A stretch of DNA of 35,258 nucleotides from Accumulibacter sp. (GTDB lineage: Bacteria > Pseudomonadota > Gammaproteobacteria > Burkholderiales > Rhodocyclaceae): contig JAEUOJ010000177.1 in the NCBI GenBank assembly GCA_016789495.1, positions 1 through 35,258 of the forward strand, written 5' to 3'. The notes under the pieces are model-generated. The model was not told where the DNA came from and made no database searches. It saw only the letters and a list, made by a program, of their open reading frames with translations. Numbering within the stretch: position 1 is the stretch's first letter; every line of letters starts with the position of its first letter. Made by a program: the position numbers and the translations under genes. This document shows positions 11,490-32,659 of the stretch, in pieces.

Positions 11490-11840
11490 ATGAGCAAACA
11501 ATGGCTTTTTCTTGTCGGGCTGCTCGCCGTCAGCGGATTGCCCGTGGCCCAGGCCGACGACGGTGATCACGATCGGGCGCGACAGGCGCTGGAAGCCGGC
11601 GAGGTGCTGCCGCTGCCGAGGATTCTGCAAGCCGTTGGGCGGGACCATCCCGGGCAGGTGATCGGTGTCGAACTCGAACGTCACCGTGAACGTTGGATAT
11701 ATGAAATCAAAATGTTGCAGAACGATGGCCGGTTGTTGAAGCTGAAGGTGGATGCGCGCGAGGCGACGATTCTCGCCGTCAAGGGACGCGACGGCCGTGA
11801 TCAGCGGCGGCGGGAGCATTCGCTGCCCGCCGCCGATTGA
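11490..11840 (+). CDS. Periplasmic PepSY-domain protein
   Basis: The 116-residue protein starts with a signal peptide (residues 1-22, cleavage after Ala-Gln-Ala). The mature part contains one PepSY-like domain: a helix ALEAGEVLPLPRILQAV, then beta strands with GVELERHRERWIYEIKML and GRLLKLKVDAREATIL. PepSY domains are small periplasmic modules thought to modulate proteases, sensors or redox partners. The gene lies 10 bp before an OmpR-type regulator and is divergent from the cytochrome operon, so it may be a sensory accessory of that two-component system or a partner of the cytochromes. No strong ribosome-binding site precedes the ATG. Confidence 0.85.
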   Translation: MSKQWLFLVGLLAVSGLPVAQADDGDHDRARQALEAGEVLPLPRILQAVGRDHPGQVIGVELERHRERWIYEIKMLQNDGRLLKLKVDAREATILAVKGRDGRDQRRREHSLPAAD

Positions 11841-11850
11841 GGACGGAACG

Positions 11851-12513
11851 ATGCGTCTGCTGCTCGTCGAAGACGATCCGATCCTGCGCCAACAGCTCGT
11901 CGAAGCCTTGCGGACGGCGGCATACGTCGTCGATAGCGCCGACAACGGCATCGACGGCCGTCATCTCGGCGAAAACGAAGCTTACGAGGCGGTGATTCTC
12001 GATCTCGGCCTGCCGCAGCTCGACGGCTTGACCGTTCTGCGCCACTGGCGGCGTCTCGGCAAGACGATGCCGGTATTGATCCTGACCGCGCGCGACAGTT
12101 GGCACGAGAAAGTCGCTGGCATCGACGCCGGCGCCGACGATTATCTGACCAAGCCGTTTCACGTCGAGGAGCTGCTCGCCCGTCTGCGGGCGCTGATCCG
12201 ACGGACTGGTGGCCACGCCAGCGCTGAATTGAGTTGTGGACCGCTGACCCTGGACACCCGCAATGGTCGGGCGGCGGTAGACGGACGGACGCTGACCCTG
12301 ACCAGCCACGAGTACCGCCTGCTCGCCTATCTGCTGTTGCATCGCGAGCAGATCGTTTCGCGCGGCGAATTGGTCGAGCACCTCTATGCCCAGGATTTCG
12401 ATCGCGACTCGAACACCGTCGAAGTGTTCATCGCTCGTCTGCGCAAGAAGTTGCCGCCCGGGCTGATCGAAACCGTCCGTGGCCTGGGCTATCGGCTCAG
12501 CGCGCCGCAGTGA
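11851..12513 (+). CDS. OmpR/QseB-type two-component response regulator
   Basis: The 220-residue regulator has a receiver domain with the acidic pair in LLVEDDP (Glu7, Asp8, Asp9), phospho-acceptor Asp51 in ILDLGLP, and Lys102 in the TKPF motif. A winged-helix DNA-binding domain follows (about 128-218), ending in VEVFIARLRKKL and RGLGYRL, as in OmpR, PhoP and QseB. The ATG at 11851 was chosen because the receiver fold starts immediately; longer frames upstream overlap the PepSY gene. The partner kinase begins 4 bp after the stop. It probably controls the divergent cytochrome operon and its own operon through the phased repeats at 11429-11465. Confidence 0.94.
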   Translation: MRLLLVEDDPILRQQLVEALRTAAYVVDSADNGIDGRHLGENEAYEAVILDLGLPQLDGLTVLRHWRRLGKTMPVLILTARDSWHEKVAGIDAGADDYLTKPFHVEELLARLRALIRRTGGHASAELSCGPLTLDTRNGRAAVDGRTLTLTSHEYRLLAYLLLHREQIVSRGELVEHLYAQDFDRDSNTVEVFIARLRKKLPPGLIETVRGLGYRLSAPQ

Positions 12514-27514: not shown

Positions 27515-29122
27515 TCAGGGCAGGGCGGGCAGCGTGCGGCTGGTCAGTTCGCCCGCCAGCAGGCTGGCATTGCGGGCGGCCAGACCGTAGATCGTCAGTT
27601 GTGGATTGGCGCCCAGGCTGGTTGGCAGCAATGAACCATCATTCACGGTCAGATTGTCCAGCCAGAAGTGCCGGCCGCGATGATCGACCACGCCACGCTG
27701 GGCACTGTCGGCCATCCCGCACCCGCCCATGACGTGTGCACTGACCACCCGGCAGGCCAAAGGCTTCAAGGGCAGGGCGGCGATCGCCTCCTTCGCTTCC
27801 GCCCAACTGGCATATCCGCTGGCGAGTTCATGCACCGGCGTCACCGACCGCGCACCGGCGGCGAACTGGATTTCCGCCATCGCCAGCAAGGCCCGTCGGG
27901 CGGCCTCCCAGATCGTTTCGTTGAGCGGATAGTCGAGAATCGGTGTCCCGTCGCTCGCCAGCCGCACGTGGCCGCCCCGGCTTTCCGGATGAAATCCGTC
28001 GCGCAGCAACGCCAGTAGCACCTGCGCGTGGGTGAATTCGCGCATCACGCGTTGATGCGCGGCGCCAAAGCCTGGCAAGGTGGTCGAAAACAGCACCGGA
28101 TGCAGCGGCGCGCTTTCGATCTTGAAACCGAGAGCGCCGTCGATCGGTGCTTGGTGCAGAAAATGGTCGGTATAGATGGTCTGCGGAGCGCCGGCGTAGG
28201 CATCGACCCGATTCGGCATCAGCGCCGCCGAAATGACGACTGGATGGAGAAAAGTGCGCTTGCCGATCAGTCGCTGGGGATCAGGGACGCCGCTGCGCAG
28301 CAGCAGCGCCGGGCTGCCGATGGCCCCGGCGGCCACGACGAAATGGCGGGCGCGCAGTTGCAAACGTTTGCCGGAGAGATGGAGGCCATCCGACTGCAAG
28401 GCCAGGCAGTCAAGTGCGGAGACGGTATGGCCGGCGAAACGCAGACGTTCGGCGCGCAGCCGGGTGTACAGCGTGGCACCGTGCTGCAGGGCGACCGGAA
28501 TGCTGGTCAACAGCATCGACTGTTTGGCGTTGGTCGGGCAGCCCATGCCGCAGTAGCCCAGGTTCCAGCAACCTTTGACGTTGCGTTTGATCTGGCCGAC
28601 CGGGATCGCCAGTTTCTCGCCACCGACCGCCAGAAGCTGATTGTTGGCGTTTGGCGGCGTCTCCCATGGCCGGATCGACAGTTTGTGTTCGATCACCGCG
28701 AACCATGGAATCAAGGCGTCTACGGTCAACGAGCGTAGTCCGAACTGGCGCTGCCAATAGTCGAGCACTTCGGACGGGGTGCGGAAGCTGCTGGTCCAAT
28801 TGACGGTCGTCGAGCCGCCGACACAGCGTCCCTGCAGAATGTTGATCGCTTTGTCGGCTGTTTTGCGGGCGGCGGAATCCTGATACAGCTCGGGATAAGC
28901 GACGGATTCGAGCATCTTGAAATCGCTGGACGAACGCAGCGGCCCTTCCTCGACCATCGCGACGCGCAGACCGGCGGCGCTGAGCAGTTCGGCGGTCACC
29001 CCGCCGCCAGCGCCGGTGCCGACGATGACCACATCGAAGTCGACGGTGTGATTCCTGCCCAGGGTCGAGGCATCGATGTGCCGCCAGCCGCTGGCCAGAC
29101 CGGCTTTGATCGGATCGACCAT
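27515..29122 (-). CDS. GMC-family FAD oxidoreductase (membrane-linked alcohol dehydrogenase type)
   Basis: The 535-residue flavoprotein has the FAD-binding GTGAGGGVTAELLSAAGLRVAMVEEG at residues 35-60. It also has a Cys-rich NLGYCGMGCPTNAKQS segment typical of the cytochrome-linked rather than oxygen-using branch, and the C-terminal active-site block with His463 (SAHVMGGCGM) and Asn506 (GANPQLT). No signal peptide is seen. The ATG overlaps the stop of a Tat-signal small protein (ATGA), so the small partner may carry the large subunit across the membrane, as in gluconate/sorbitol dehydrogenases. Substrate is unknown; the aldehyde dehydrogenase in the same operon suggests an alcohol. Confidence 0.9.
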   Translation of the reverse strand: MVDPIKAGLASGWRHIDASTLGRNHTVDFDVVIVGTGAGGGVTAELLSAAGLRVAMVEEGPLRSSSDFKMLESVAYPELYQDSAARKTADKAINILQGRCVGGSTTVNWTSSFRTPSEVLDYWQRQFGLRSLTVDALIPWFAVIEHKLSIRPWETPPNANNQLLAVGGEKLAIPVGQIKRNVKGCWNLGYCGMGCPTNAKQSMLLTSIPVALQHGATLYTRLRAERLRFAGHTVSALDCLALQSDGLHLSGKRLQLRARHFVVAAGAIGSPALLLRSGVPDPQRLIGKRTFLHPVVISAALMPNRVDAYAGAPQTIYTDHFLHQAPIDGALGFKIESAPLHPVLFSTTLPGFGAAHQRVMREFTHAQVLLALLRDGFHPESRGGHVRLASDGTPILDYPLNETIWEAARRALLAMAEIQFAAGARSVTPVHELASGYASWAEAKEAIAALPLKPLACRVVSAHVMGGCGMADSAQRGVVDHRGRHFWLDNLTVNDGSLLPTSLGANPQLTIYGLAARNASLLAGELTSRTLPALP

Positions 29123-29625
29123 CAGAAATATCCTCGGGGTGGCCCGGGATAGGCGATGGCCTGCCAGCTTTCCGGACGCCCGTACCAGGCAGCGAAGGTC
29201 AGGTCATGCAACGCCGCGTAAGCGCTTTGCAGCAATTTCAGGCGGCTGGCTCGCCAGGTTTGCAGAAACTCGCTGACCTCATCGACAGTCGTCTGTCGCC
29301 AAGGCCGGCTGACGCCGGCGAGCATCAGCCGACCCGGAGCGAGGACCAGCAGTCCAAACAGTTCGCCGAGTTCTCGTTGCGTCGCCAGCGAAAATCCGCT
29401 TGCCACCTGCTCGATGCCATCGACGGTCACGGCCAGCCGCTGCCGCCGTTCTTCCGCCGCTTGCGGCAGGAGGTCGTCCAGCAGGGCATTGGCGACCGCG
29501 GTCAGCATGTCGCGCTCGACGCCAGTCAATCGGCGGCCGCCGGCGGCGTTGAGCCAGCCCGAGATCGACAACAGCAGTGCACCAGCCAGTCCGGTGCGCA
29601 GAAGTTGCCTGCGTCCGCTGTTCAT
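29122..29625 (-). CDS. Tat-signal small subunit/partner of the GMC dehydrogenase
   Basis: The 167-residue protein starts with a twin-arginine leader (Arg5-Arg6 followed by Gln-Leu-Leu and a hydrophobic stretch to about residue 28). The rest is helical, with a Glu-Arg-Asp-Met-Leu-Thr-Ala-Val-Ala-Asn-Ala-Leu-Leu block recalling gluconate 2-dehydrogenase subunit 3-like proteins, and aromatic residues near the C terminus (FAAWYGRPESW). In characterised systems such small subunits guide export of the FAD subunit. ATGA overlaps on both sides tie it to the aldehyde dehydrogenase upstream and the GMC gene downstream. Confidence 0.78.
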   Translation of the reverse strand: MNSGRRQLLRTGLAGALLLSISGWLNAAGGRRLTGVERDMLTAVANALLDDLLPQAAEERRQRLAVTVDGIEQVASGFSLATQRELGELFGLLVLAPGRLMLAGVSRPWRQTTVDEVSEFLQTWRASRLKLLQSAYAALHDLTFAAWYGRPESWQAIAYPGPPRGYF

Positions 29626-31037
29626 CGGATCATCAACCGCGTCAGACGGTCGAACAGCGCGCCATACGGCGGTTTGAACATGCCGATTCCCGAAAGTCGT
29701 GACTGTCGGAAGACCGCCCGTTCGACCGAAAAGGTCTTGAACCCGGCAAAGCCATGGTAACGACCCATGCCACTCGGTCCGACGCCGCCAAAAGGCAACT
29801 CGTCTTGAGCGATATGCAGAATCACGTCATTGACCGTCACCCCGCCGGAAACCGAGCCGTTGAGCACGCGCTCGATATTCGCCGGCCGTCGGTCGAAGTA
29901 ATACATCGCCAACGGTCGCGGTTGGCGATTGACGTAGCGCAGTGCCTCGTCGAGACTGCCGTAAGCGCGTAACGGTAGCAGCGGACCGAAGATTTCTTCG
30001 CGCATCACCCGTAATTGGTCGTCCGGATTAAGCAAGAGGACTGGCGGCAAGCAGCGGCGCAGCGGGTCGGCGACCACGCCGGGCGCCAATTCGACCAAGC
30101 GGGTGCCAGCTCGGCGTGCCTCGTCGAGCAAAGCCAGCAGTCGCGCATACTGGCGTTGGTCGATCACCGACGAATAGTCCGGCGAATGGGTGATGTCTGG
30201 ATAGCAGGCGGCGAAGACGCGTCGCGCCTGGTGGACGAACGCCTCCTCCTGGCCGGCCGGCAGCAGCACGTAGTCGGGTGCGATGCAGGTCTGGCCGGCG
30301 TTCAAGCACTTGCCGATGATGATTCGCTCGACGGCGTGGGCGAAATGTCGGTCCGACAGCGCCGGACCGATGATCGCCGGTGATTTGCCACCGAGTTCGA
30401 GCGTCACCGGCGTCAGATTGTCCGCCGCCGAACGCATGATCGACCGGCCGACCGTCGTCGAACCGGTGAATAGCAAATGGTCGAACGGCAGCCGGGCGAA
30501 TTCCTGGGCGACGGCGACATCGCCTTCGACGACTGACAATTCGTCGTCGGCGAAATGCCGCGCCAGCAGTTCGGCGAACAGTGTCGCGGTCGCTGGGGTG
30601 AATTCGGACATCTTGACCAGGGCTCGATTGCCGGCGGCGAGCGCCGAGGCCAGCGGCGCGACCGCCAGATAGAGCGGATAATTCCACGGCACCATCACGC
30701 CGACCGCACCCATCGGGGTATAACGCACTTCGGCGCGAGCCGGCTGAAACCACATGCCGACCGATCGGTTTTGCGGTCGCATCCACCGTCGCAAATGGCG
30801 CAGCGCGTGCCGCAAGGCCTGATGGCTGGGAAAAAGTTCGAACAAACGGGTTTCCGCCGGCGAACGGTGGCCGAAATCGCGGCGTACGGCATCGATCAAC
30901 GCCGCTTCGTTATCACTCAGCAGAGCCCCGAGGGTCTTCAACCGCCGTTCCCGGACCGCTGGCGGTGGATTGGAATCGTCTCGCGCGGCGGCCTGCAAAC
31001 GGGCGAAGCGGCTGGCCAGGGAATCGGCAACGGGCAT
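29622..31037 (-). CDS. Aldehyde dehydrogenase, coniferyl-aldehyde dehydrogenase type
   Basis: The 471-residue NAD(P)-dependent enzyme has the class 3-like ALDH core: PWNYPLYLAVAPL at about 118-130, FTGSTTVGRSIM near 190-201, general base Glu214 in LELGGKSP and nucleophile Cys251 in GQTCIAPDYVL. Opening and length resemble coniferyl aldehyde dehydrogenases (CalB). ATG 31037 has GAGGA 7 bases upstream; an upstream TTG-type extension is not family-like. It is the first gene of the minus-strand operon and would oxidise the aldehyde produced by the GMC enzyme. Substrate specificity cannot be read from sequence alone. Confidence 0.92.
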   Translation of the reverse strand: MPVADSLASRFARLQAAARDDSNPPPAVRERRLKTLGALLSDNEAALIDAVRRDFGHRSPAETRLFELFPSHQALRHALRHLRRWMRPQNRSVGMWFQPARAEVRYTPMGAVGVMVPWNYPLYLAVAPLASALAAGNRALVKMSEFTPATATLFAELLARHFADDELSVVEGDVAVAQEFARLPFDHLLFTGSTTVGRSIMRSAADNLTPVTLELGGKSPAIIGPALSDRHFAHAVERIIIGKCLNAGQTCIAPDYVLLPAGQEEAFVHQARRVFAACYPDITHSPDYSSVIDQRQYARLLALLDEARRAGTRLVELAPGVVADPLRRCLPPVLLLNPDDQLRVMREEIFGPLLPLRAYGSLDEALRYVNRQPRPLAMYYFDRRPANIERVLNGSVSGGVTVNDVILHIAQDELPFGGVGPSGMGRYHGFAGFKTFSVERAVFRQSRLSGIGMFKPPYGALFDRLTRLMIR

Positions 31038-31143
31038 CGTCAAATCCTCGCAACAGTACCGGCAGAGTGTAATCCGCCGCCGGCCCATCGGTTAGGTTGC
31101 GGCGACTAAACTTGTGGCGTGTGATCCATGGATAATTCAGCCG

Positions 31144-31872
31144 ATGAATCAGCCATCCCCTCCGGACGACCGACGAACCAGCGCCGAGGCGCTGCGGCAA
31201 CACCTGCTTTCGGCGAAAACGTTGCGCCGGCAAGCCAAGGTCGATGCGACGACCGCCCATCATCACATGCGCCTGCGCGCCTGGCAGGCCGGGCGGCTGG
31301 CACGCACCCACGCCGACCTGCTGTGTAGCGCGCGTTTCGGCGAAGCGGCGCGATTTTTTCTGACCGATCTGTACGGTCCCAAGGATTTCAGTCGACGTGA
31401 CGAGGAACTGGAACGAATCCTGCCGCTGCTGATCAAGATGCTGCCGGCTTCGGCACTATACACCGTCGCTCTGGCGGTGGAGCTCGACGCGTTGACCGAA
31501 CGGCTGGATGCGGCGATGGTCCAGGCACTGGCGGCGGATGCGGCGATCGATGACCTCGACGAAGCCCGTTACGCCGATGCCTACCGTTTCGTCGGGCTTC
31601 GTGAGCTGCGTTTACGCCAGATCGAACTGATCGGCCAGATTGGCCGCTTTCTTGAACGGCTGGCTGGGAAACCGTTGCTGACCCAACTGCTCAAGCTGAT
31701 GCGGCAACCCGCGCAAGCCGCCGGGCTCGGTGACTTGCAGGAATTCCTTGAACGAGGTTTTCTCGCCTTTCGCCACATGGGGCCGGCCAAGGAGTTCCTC
31801 GAGGCAATCGAATATCGGGAGCAGCGGCTGCTGAATCAGCTCTTTTCCAGCGCGGCGGACCCCTTTGCCTGA
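31144..31872 (+). CDS. FFLEELY-motif protein of unknown function
   Basis: The 242-residue, mostly helical soluble protein contains RFFLTDLYGPKDFSRRDEELERILP, the variant here of the FFLEELY motif that names a proteobacterial family of unknown function. The N-terminal part is rich in Arg and His, and the C-terminal part is Leu-rich with amphipathic helices. I prefer ATG 31144; an in-frame GTG at 31114 is possible, and neither has a clear ribosome-binding site. It is divergent from the aldehyde dehydrogenase. A short hairpin with ACGGCC/GGCCGT arms lies 16 bases after the stop. Confidence 0.82.
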   Translation: MNQPSPPDDRRTSAEALRQHLLSAKTLRRQAKVDATTAHHHMRLRAWQAGRLARTHADLLCSARFGEAARFFLTDLYGPKDFSRRDEELERILPLLIKMLPASALYTVALAVELDALTERLDAAMVQALAADAAIDDLDEARYADAYRFVGLRELRLRQIELIGQIGRFLERLAGKPLLTQLLKLMRQPAQAAGLGDLQEFLERGFLAFRHMGPAKEFLEAIEYREQRLLNQLFSSAADPFA

Positions 31873-31887
31873 GCGGAGCCGCTGCTG

Positions 31888-31905
31888 ACGGCCGCTCAAG
31901 GCCGT
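31888..31905 (+). terminator. Weak hairpin after the FFLEELY gene
   Basis: The arms ACGGCC and GGCCGT enclose a 6-base loop, followed by TCGCTTCTT rather than a clean T run. It may end transcription of the gene at 31144, but it is not a strong intrinsic terminator. Confidence 0.3.
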
Positions 31906-31923
31906 TCGCTTCTTACATGCCGT

Positions 31924-31950
31924 CACAGAAATCCACAGAGAATTCACAGA
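31924..31950. repeat. Three CACAGA direct repeats, helically phased
   Basis: CACAGA occurs at 31924-31929, 31934-31939 and 31945-31950, with starts 10 and 11 bp apart, on one face of the helix. The array lies 21-47 bp upstream of a TAGTAT -10-like box (31971-31976), a position suited to an activator. Confidence 0.5.
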
Positions 31951-31980
31951 TCCGGTGCGATCGGGTGCGGTAGTATTCAC

Positions 31981-32075
31981 CTGTCGCCGAGGTGCTCCTT
32001 TCCTCCCCCTCCCCTCCGGAGTATCGCGGTGACGGCAACACCGGCCCGCCCAGCCCCCTGCGCGGGCCGTTTTTA
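31981..32075 (+). ncRNA. Candidate small RNA with C-rich anti-Shine-Dalgarno loop
   Basis: Bases 31981-31998 pair with 32018-32035 in an 18-position stem with one A-G mismatch and a few G-U pairs. The 19-base loop (31999-32017) is entirely C and T and contains CCTCC several times, the complement of a ribosome-binding site. Six bases later a strong intrinsic terminator follows. A TAGTAT box at 31971-31976 would start transcription about where the stem begins, giving an RNA of about 95 bases. No open frame of note lies within. The layout resembles the C-rich-loop riboregulators of other Proteobacteria (for example the CCUCCUCCC 'cuckoo' RNAs and Xanthomonas sX13), though I do not recognise this one. 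No -35 box is evident. Confidence 0.55.
32042..32074 (+). terminator. Strong intrinsic terminator
   Basis: CGGCCCGC (32042-32049) pairs perfectly with GCGGGCCG (32062-32069), enclosing a 12-base loop, followed directly by TTTTT-A-TTTTT. No protein gene ends within 160 bp upstream, so it most simply ends the candidate small RNA. Confidence 0.85.
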
Positions 32076-32119
32076 TTTTTGGAGCGGCCTGAAAAGCGTG
32101 CCTGCGAAGGAGGGTAGGA

Positions 32120-32148
32120 TTGATCAGCAACATACTGCTTCATATATC
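32120..32148 (+). promoter_or_regulatory. Candidate sigma-70 promoter for the 32258 membrane protein
   Basis: TTGATC (32120-32125) and TATATC (32143-32148) are 17 bp apart, each matching 4 of 6 consensus bases. They lie about 110 bp upstream of the ATG and after the small-RNA terminator. Confidence 0.3.
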
Positions 32149-32164
32149 TTGCCAGCCCTCTGGA

Positions 32165-32178
32165 TTGAATATGATCAC
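32165..32178. promoter_or_regulatory. FNR-like box upstream of the 32258 gene
   Basis: TTGAA-TATG-ATCAC matches 8 of 10 positions of TTGAT-N4-ATCAA. It lies 80 bp upstream of the membrane-protein ATG. The Crp/Fnr protein at 20457-21149 has the Glu-Ser-Arg recognition residues for this type of site, so it could bind here; this is inference. Confidence 0.3.
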
Positions 32179-32257
32179 TGAGTTCCGATCTGAAAACCGT
32201 GCGCAAAGCGAATAATTCAGCCTTTCCCGGAATACTGTCTCGAACGCAAGGACTGTG

Positions 32258-32659
32258 ATGAATACCGATCGACATGCCGTCCCCGATAGTTCAGAAAGCT
32301 TCATGACCTCTCCCAAGACCGCCTGGCTGGCCAAGGTGCTCGCACTGCTGCTCGGCGCGGTCGCGGTCACCGTCGGCGTGATGTTTTCCATGCTGGCCTT
32401 GGCCGTATTGCTGGTCGTCGGGGTGATTCTTTTCGGCGTGCTGCTCTGGAAGACACGCCACTTGCGTCGGCAACTGCAACAGCGGATGAACTCGCCGGGG
32501 GACTGGCCGGCCCCGGCCTGGCAAGAGGATCGCGGCCACGGCACGATCATCGATGGCGAAGCGGTCCGTCAACCGGCGAATGAGCAGGGACCCGCTCTCG
32601 TCGACCCATCCTCACAAGCGCGCGTCAAGCCGCACGGAGCTAATTTCGGAACCGACTGA
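32258..32659 (+). CDS. Small two-helix membrane protein of unknown function
   Basis: The 133-residue protein has two adjacent hydrophobic helices at about 26-45 and 48-67 (AKVLALLLGAVAVTVGVMF and ALAVLLVVGVILFGVLLW), followed by a basic segment KTRHLRRQLQQR and a polar tail. I do not recognise a named domain; similar short proteins with a WKTRxLRRQL end occur in Rhodocyclales. ATG 32258 has AAGGA 5 bases upstream. It lies between the candidate small RNA and the lytic transglycosylase gene. Confidence 0.7.
   Translation: MNTDRHAVPDSSESFMTSPKTAWLAKVLALLLGAVAVTVGVMFSMLALAVLLVVGVILFGVLLWKTRHLRRQLQQRMNSPGDWPAPAWQEDRGHGTIIDGEAVRQPANEQGPALVDPSSQARVKPHGANFGTD

What the first reader, a model, noticed from the sequence alone, without database searches (positions are those of the whole stretch)
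31981..32075. Candidate undescribed small RNA with an all-pyrimidine CCTCC-repeat loop
A long stem (31981-31998 with 32018-32035, 17 of 18 positions pairing) displays a 19-base loop made only of C and T, with several CCTCC motifs that could block Shine-Dalgarno sites. A strong terminator follows 6 bases later with no protein gene to serve. The geometry (a -10-like TAGTAT, then stem, loop and terminator) suggests a dedicated RNA of about 95 bases that represses many mRNAs by pairing with their ribosome-binding sites. Strong local sites such as AGGAGG before the DHC gene would be possible targets.
Basis: partly seen in the sequence, partly recalled or inferred. Interest (0 to 1): 0.75.

Follow-up and report, generated by a model that had tools for sequence, protein, structure and literature searches.

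The report
Conserved C-rich-loop small RNA of Accumulibacter
The window carries a gene for a short, apparently undescribed regulatory RNA, kept in two forms by bacteria of the wastewater genus Candidatus Accumulibacter, whose exposed C/T-only loop looks built to cover ribosome-binding sites on messenger RNAs.

Summary
It is very probably a real RNA gene. A covariance model from 25 relatives' copies hits 28 of 28 held genomes of its genus, including 9 genomes and a whole second locus not used to build it; named contigs identify the genus as Candidatus Accumulibacter. Locus A (this one) follows an FFLEELY-motif gene; locus B precedes an M16 peptidase. The stems covary, G-U pairs outnumber A-C mismatches 107 to 23, and the loop stays about 95% pyrimidine while its length changes. 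Both loci share ACA half-sites 10-11 bp apart resembling RstA/OmpR boxes. No Rfam family reaches threshold. Likeliest mechanism: C-rich loops pair with G-rich Shine-Dalgarno regions and block translation, as for sX13, NmsR and ar14 RNAs. prpC is a candidate target, though not found in the window's own draft genome. Transcription, regulator and targets are inferred.

The parts
31912..31952 (+). Upstream array of four ACA half-sites (ACA at 31915, 31925, 31935, 31946; spacing 10, 10, 11), RstA/OmpR-type box
   Evidence: Sequence; similar arrays upstream of locus A and B copies in relatives; pattern TNACANNNNGTNACANARNNNNACA hits 31913-31937; resembles published RstA box and OmpR motif
31971..31976 (+). 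-10-like element TAGTAT; no recognisable -35 hexamer
   Evidence: Sequence; TAGYAT-like (locus A) or TATTCT/TACTCT-like (many locus B) elements at this place in relatives; simple promoter scan negative
31981..32076 (+). Small RNA gene, about 95 nt (5' end inferred from the -10 element)
   Evidence: Model hit 31975-32075, E 4.2e-16 (this copy is in the model); fold; covariation
31981..32035 (+). Hairpin 1, 17 pairs of 18 positions
31999..32017 (+). All-pyrimidine apical loop TTTCCTCCCCCTCCCCTCC, proposed anti-Shine-Dalgarno region
   Evidence: loop columns hold 55 purines in 1125 letters of 57 copies, the linker 209 in 430
32042..32080 (+). Intrinsic terminator hairpin (32042-32069) with C-rich loop, and U tract

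Best explanation
31981-32076 (+) encodes a trans-acting small RNA, one of two paralogous RNAs (loci A and B) of Candidatus Accumulibacter. An OmpR-subfamily response regulator (RstA- or OmpR-like) probably activates it from the half-site array at 31912-31952 through a promoter that lacks a good -35. The RNA ends at its own terminator. Hairpin 1 presents a long C/U-only loop, and the terminator loop is C-rich too. They can pair in many registers with G-rich Shine-Dalgarno regions and so block ribosome binding. Shown here: structure, strand, conservation, paralogy, shared upstream box. Inferred: transcription, the regulator, pairing, repression and targets (prpC first candidate in genomes that have it, bamB weaker).
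For: Fold z -6.33. Model R1, built from 25 locus A copies of 19 genomes, hits 28 of 28 genus genomes, so 9 of 9 not used in the model, and finds locus B, of which no copy was used. On 58 aligned copies 92.8% of cells pair against 85.5% shuffled (0 of 500 reach it) and at most 54.0% when slid; 12 pairs have changes on both sides. In 1205 cells: 1011 Watson-Crick, 107 G-U, 23 A-C or C-A, 64 other, which marks the + strand as the RNA. Loop purines 4.9% against 48.6% in the linker; CCTCC in the hairpin-1 region of 57 of 57 full copies. Upstream array at both loci. TNACANNNNGTTACA has 12 sites in 6 genomes, 6 of them the locus B promoters, one per genome; reversed control 5. It resembles the RstA box TACATNTNGTTACA (PMC4117788, passages) and OmpR GTTACATTTTGTTACAT (PMC5438342, passages). 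prpC start regions pair with four loops at mean -16.8 kcal/mol (25 sequences; about -16.4 without the G015 one that drew attention) against -7.1 for 168 genes of G009, 4 of 168 at or below -16.8. Precedents: sX13, NmsR, ar14/NfeR1, passages only.
Against: No transcript data. The window's own draft genome has no prpC match. prpC was picked because one relative (G015) matched a G-rich start pattern, so it is ascertained, and strong Shine-Dalgarno sites give strong energies with any C-rich loop. At the likely start codons five of six response regulators examined show no pairing (about -1 or weaker), so no feedback site is evident; the sixth, L183, gives -9.0. Only 2 of the 8 Trans_reg_C matches of the window's genome were scanned for family: L186 best RstA, 293.5 bits, and L190 best OmpR, 259.7 bits, both below cut-off. 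Four of the 22 loci titled Accumulibacter gave no RNA hit (L105, L106, L108, L123); L108 ends in N inside the loop. The A2 alignment was fitted to a model with 18 of the 23 pairs counted.
Confidence: 0.66

Rival explanations
1. The hairpins are only the 3' UTR and terminator of the upstream FFLEELY gene, without a trans function.
For: FFLEELY gene ends 108 nt before the stem, same strand; a homologue lies beside locus A in 24 of 28 genomes, not in G005, G007, G010 or at the G019 contig end (counted).
Against: Conserved upstream box and -10 between gene and hairpin; tandem copies each with own -10 and terminator in G002, G017, G023, G027; locus B has other neighbours and a like box; a terminator does not need a pyrimidine-only loop.
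Confidence: 0.08
2. The RNA is a sponge or protein-binding decoy (for an RNA-binding protein or another RNA with G-rich loops) rather than a blocker of mRNA start regions.
For: Loop sequence varies in register and length (11 to 30 letters; the columns counted allow at most 30) while staying C/U, so composition more than sequence is kept.
Against: No G-rich partner RNA is known here (none was searched for); C-rich or anti-SD loops of sX13, NmsR and ar14 RNAs act on mRNA start regions.
Confidence: 0.15
3. The pyrimidine tract is kept for a DNA-level role (G-quadruplex or triplex on the other strand), and the RNA is incidental.
For: 32 of 57 copies have at least four runs of three or more C in the region; N stretches lie in or next to the loop in L108 and G021.
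Against: Covarying stem with G-U excess on one strand; conserved terminator and promoter-like elements; 25 of 57 copies lack four such C runs.
Confidence: 0.06
4. A small protein is encoded here.
For: Mechanical ORFs overlap on the minus strand.
Against: Loop length varies without regard to frame; no Pfam match for 31913-32275 (31612-32133 not scanned); long open frames are common by chance in GC-rich DNA.
Confidence: 0.02

Closest known systems
sX13 of Xanthomonas (RF02232; PMC3771888, abstract and passages)
   Same: Stable stems with apical C-rich loops; repressed mRNAs carry G-rich motifs near the start codon; 115 nt
   Different: Three stems, other sequence, 12.6 bits against threshold 50; no paralogue pair or RstA/OmpR-type box in the passages seen
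ar14 / cuckoo RNAs, NfeR1 (RF02344; PMC10746234, passages)
   Same: Unpaired regions with redundant anti-Shine-Dalgarno motifs; stems vary in sequence
   Different: Three hairpins each with CCUCCUCCC; here two hairpins and one long loop of variable length; 17.5 bits against threshold 58.8
NmsRA/NmsRB sibling RNAs of Neisseria (PMC5362039, passages)
   Same: Betaproteobacterial sibling RNAs with UC-rich anti-SD regions; PrpC 5' UTR among their predicted interactions
   Different: Tandem, three stem-loops, anti-SD partly in a single-stranded linker; no sequence comparison made here
OmrA/OmrB (RF00079; PMC12692685, passages)
   Same: Paralogous RNA pair activated by an OmpR-type regulator
   Different: Pair through conserved terminal regions, not C-rich loops; 16.1 bits against threshold 40; the regulator here is only inferred
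Betaproteobacteria toxic small RNA (RF02278; PMC4603805, passages)
   Same: Short multi-copy RNAs with terminators in a betaproteobacterium
   Different: No match even at E 10; their anti-SD action is recalled, not read here

Membership tests
sX13 (RF02232) | Score at or above the Rfam gathering threshold (50 bits) | tested here: not met
   12.6 bits; no family at threshold in 12 loci, 2 of them from the window's genome
sX13 (RF02232) | C-rich apical loops | tested here: met
sX13 (RF02232) | Three stems | tested here: not met
   Two hairpins
ar14 / cuckoo RNA (RF02344) | Score at or above gathering threshold (58.8 bits) | tested here: not met
   17.5 bits
ar14 / cuckoo RNA (RF02344) | Three hairpins with CCUCCUCCC | tested here: not met
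   Two hairpins; the window's loop reads TTTCCTCCCCCTCCCCTCC
ar7 (RF02342) | Score at or above gathering threshold (60 bits) | tested here: not met
   18.9 bits
OmrA-B (RF00079) | Score at or above gathering threshold (40 bits) | tested here: not met
   16.1 bits
Betaproteobacteria toxic small RNA (RF02278) | Covariance match | tested here: not met
   Not among the 8 matches up to E 10
NmsR sibling RNAs | Sequence or structure homology to NmsRA/B | not tested
   No comparison with their sequences was made
C-rich-loop anti-Shine-Dalgarno small RNAs (functional kind) | Conserved unpaired C/U-rich loop on a stable stem | tested here: met
C-rich-loop anti-Shine-Dalgarno small RNAs (functional kind) | Represses translation by pairing at ribosome-binding sites | not testable with these tools
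   Only duplex energies computed
RstA/OmpR-regulated RNA | Tandem TACA/GTTACA-like half-sites 10 bp apart upstream | tested here: met
   Locus B mostly YACANNNNGTTACA; locus A TTACANNNNGTCACA or variants
RstA/OmpR-regulated RNA | Regulator binds and activates | not testable with these tools
   Needs a binding assay

The most novel reading that the evidence does not exclude
A pair of RNAs kept throughout Ca. Accumulibacter is the main output of a dedicated RstA/OmpR-type signal. Their slippage-prone pyrimidine loops act as a tunable, many-register brake on genes with the strongest G-rich ribosome-binding sites, including entry of propionyl-CoA into the methylcitrate cycle (prpC), in an organism central to biological phosphorus removal.
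Probability: 0.25. Interest if true: 0.72.

Novelty: new member of a known kind. Interest (0 to 1): 0.55.

Why it matters
Ca. Accumulibacter is a model organism of biological phosphorus removal (PMC12604563, start of abstract) and has no pure culture (same paper, passage). I found no report of a small RNA in it, within these limits: 'Accumulibacter' + 'small RNA' + 'sRNA' together, 0 papers; two looser searches of which I saw only the listings, 15 of 814 and 12 of 30,234. One listed paper, PMC11999188, holds the term 'non-coding RNA' once and was not read. A riboregulator found in each of 28 held genomes, with a recognisable promoter box and a testable pairing rule, can be looked for at once in existing stranded metatranscriptomes.

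Tried and rejected
Rfam membership: rejected, none at threshold. Homologues outside the genus: in 297 genomes of the family 15 hit, 12 of the genus plus G143 (E 3e-7, with the same kind of box, accepted) and G187, G248 (E 0.002-0.003, no box, taken as chance); in 300 of the order 3 hit, own plus two at E 0.002-0.003, taken as chance without further study. The first DNA search hit 28 of 101 relatives; 3 of the 28 lay outside the genus with matches of 24-34 nt in the terminator part. G020's second hit (E 0.0054, L076) lacks the box and the M16 neighbour; it was dropped as a copy and not given to the A2 search.

Feedback on the response regulators: no evident site in five of six. A first start-region comparison in the window (29 genes, p 3.6e-5) chose start codons by Shine-Dalgarno strength and so was biased; I do not use it. 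One search has the same kind of start choice, which there works against the prpC contrast. Of 25 G-rich start-like sites in 6 genomes, 17 precede a frame shorter than 100 codons; only prpC and bamB were followed. bamB is weaker: mean -14.1 over 27 loci, 5 of 27 weaker than -7. One search dropped tblastn rows under 55% identity, rows starting after residue 30, and repeated upstream sequences; its four control families include loci of other genera. One search printed 25 of 26 prpC places (G002, at a contig edge, left out). A2 includes one 33-nt partial copy (L091), left out of the 57 full copies. The longer box pattern with one mismatch gave 7 sites in 6 genomes: 5 at the RNA's promoters, 2 elsewhere (G009:C1:2772445, G000:C16:11804), with 2 control hits; it missed both promoters of G009, so a strict form of the box is not universal.

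Full report
Observation. The fold is far below shuffles (z -6.33, 0 of 200 as low). A scan of both strands for 18-bp arms with at least 17 pairs around a 12-30 nt C/T-only loop returns only 31981. Rfam gives nothing at threshold in the whole window; with permissive filters the best scores are ar7 18.9 (threshold 60), Hrs10 18.6 on the other strand (108), ar14 17.5 (58.8), Hrs13 17.4 (52), OmrA-B 16.1 (40) and sX13 12.6 (50).

Host. The genus is therefore taken as Candidatus Accumulibacter. The window is contig 164 of a draft genome of 3.26 Mb, 87.6% complete.

Conservation. A DNA search found matches in 28 of 101 relatives, 25 of them in the genus. I aligned 25 copies (A1), built model R1 and searched 28 genomes of the genus: 28 of 28 hit, 25 with two matches and 3 with three. 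The 25 copies come from 19 of these genomes, so 9 of the 28 are independent of the model; no locus B copy was in it. In 80 named loci around relatives of the FFLEELY gene, 24 matches fell in 19 loci: 18 titled Accumulibacter and L104, titled Pseudomonadota, whose contig length equals that of genus member G006. Four more loci titled Accumulibacter had no hit: L105, L106 and L123, in whose next 330 bases I saw no box, and L108, whose contig has the box and then N inside the loop. Whether those genomes carry the RNA elsewhere was not searched. In the family sample only G143 outside the genus is credible; it shows the same kind of box and TAGTAT.

Two loci. All 28 genomes have a locus A copy (G019's is cut by a contig end). 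A homologue of the FFLEELY gene lies beside it in 24 of 28, and of mltB in 21 of 28, within the roughly 1.5 kb held on each side, contig ends included as misses (counted). Locus B, in the window's genome at contig 110:13576-13674 (-), has a copy in 25 of 28 genomes (G023's partial; none accepted in G002, G020, G024), with the M16 peptidase gene in 24 of the 25; the 25th (G014) is at a contig end. Tandem copies at locus A occur in G002, G017, G023 and G027; their downstream copies keep the last half-site(s) and the -10 but lack the distal pair of half-sites. G024's two copies lie on different contigs.

Structure. On 58 copies (A2) the 23-pair structure gives 92.8% paired cells (shuffled 85.5, 0 of 500 reach it), 12 pairs with changes on both sides (shuffled 7.1), covariation score 0.277 against 0.165; sliding by 1-3 columns drops pairing to 32-54%. 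A2 was fitted to a model carrying 18 of these 23 pairs, so the figures lean towards the structure; two added pairs next to the loop have almost no letters and never pair. The cells divide into 1011 Watson-Crick, 107 G-U, 23 A-C or C-A and 64 other: changes tolerated as G-U on the + strand would be A-C mismatches on the other, so the RNA is the + strand. Loop columns of 57 full copies hold 55 purines in 1125 letters (4.9%), the linker 209 in 430 (48.6%); all 57 contain CCTCC in the hairpin-1 region, 55 of 57 have a pyrimidine run of at least 12 there. The terminator loop is C-rich as well: runs of four or more C in most locus A copies, CCCTCCC or CTCTCCC in 23 of 24 full locus B copies (read).

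Promoter region. Upstream of the -10-like element lies an array of ACA half-sites 10-11 bp apart: in the window 31915, 31925, 31935, 31946. Locus B reads roughly TCACANNCCGTTACACAAC..GGGACAGAG..CAACAGAT, with variants. This fits the published RstA box TACATNTNGTTACA (PMC4117788, passages seen) and OmpR motif GTTACATTTTGTTACAT (PMC5438342, passages seen). TNACANNNNGTTACA occurs 12 times in six genomes, one in each being the locus B promoter; the reversed control occurs 5 times. A longer pattern with one mismatch gave 7 sites, 5 at the RNA's promoters. The window's genome has 8 matches to the Trans_reg_C family, G009 15. I scanned six of these 23 proteins: G009's L193 is OmpR above cut-off (398.9 against 331) and its L197 OmpR-like below it (313.1); the window genome's L186 is best matched by RstA (293.5 against 330) and L190 by OmpR (259.7), both below cut-off. 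The regulator's identity is open.

Mechanism. The sequence facts fit a trans-acting RNA whose C/U loops pair with G-rich start regions. In Xanthomonas, sX13 uses C-rich loops on G-rich motifs and does not need Hfq (PMC3771888, abstract and passages). In Neisseria, NmsRA/B act on TCA-cycle genes through anti-SD regions, with predicted interactions at PrpB, PrpC, GltA and SucC 5' UTRs (PMC5362039, passages). In rhizobia, ar14 RNAs carry three redundant anti-SD motifs (PMC10746234, passages). A G-rich start pattern in six genomes gave 25 places, among them prpC of G015 and a bamB-like gene of G006 (prpC identity by NCBIfam, 617 bits against 550; bamB named by me from the sequence, no family call). 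prpC is present in 25 of 28 genomes at E 1e-100 (not in the window's, G011's or G018's), and most of its start regions are G-rich: mean duplex energy with four loops -16.8 kcal/mol over 25 sequences against means of -1.5, -4.0, -7.3 and -9.4 for four other gene families and -7.1 for 168 reading frames of G009, of which 4 are as low. bamB averages -14.1 over 27 loci. These are leads: both genes came from a list made with a G-rich pattern, and strong ribosome-binding sites would look alike for other reasons.

Verdict. A new small-RNA family of a known functional kind, well supported as an RNA gene, with regulator and targets inferred. I put a real dedicated RNA at about 0.95, an RstA/OmpR-type activator at about 0.6, repression through start-region pairing at about 0.7.

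Noticed in passing
L108 end; G021:C56:12611-12756; G019:C24 end; G024:C68 end: Contigs end near, or carry N inside, the RNA gene, so the pyrimidine tract may break assemblies and the RNA may be missed in drafts.
   Followed up: partly
L020, L090, L043, L051: Tandem copies of the RNA in four genomes; the downstream copies lack the distal half-site pair, so their control may differ.
   Followed up: partly
L176 (G009:C1:2772445-2772469): A similar half-site array precedes a small protein with a signal-peptide-like start (my reading); a possible further regulon member in that genome.
   Followed up: no
window 12283-12498: A Trans_reg_C (OmpR/PhoB-type) response regulator lies in the window itself (ORF 11752-12513, +).
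   Followed up: no
   Followed up: partly
window 27515-31088 (-): GMC-type oxidoreductase, a small neighbour protein without Pfam match and an aldehyde dehydrogenase in a row, next to the FFLEELY gene.
   Followed up: no
G143:C256:2116-2212: One genome of another genus of the family carries a single copy with the same kind of box, between other genes, which suggests an older origin or transfer.
   Followed up: partly
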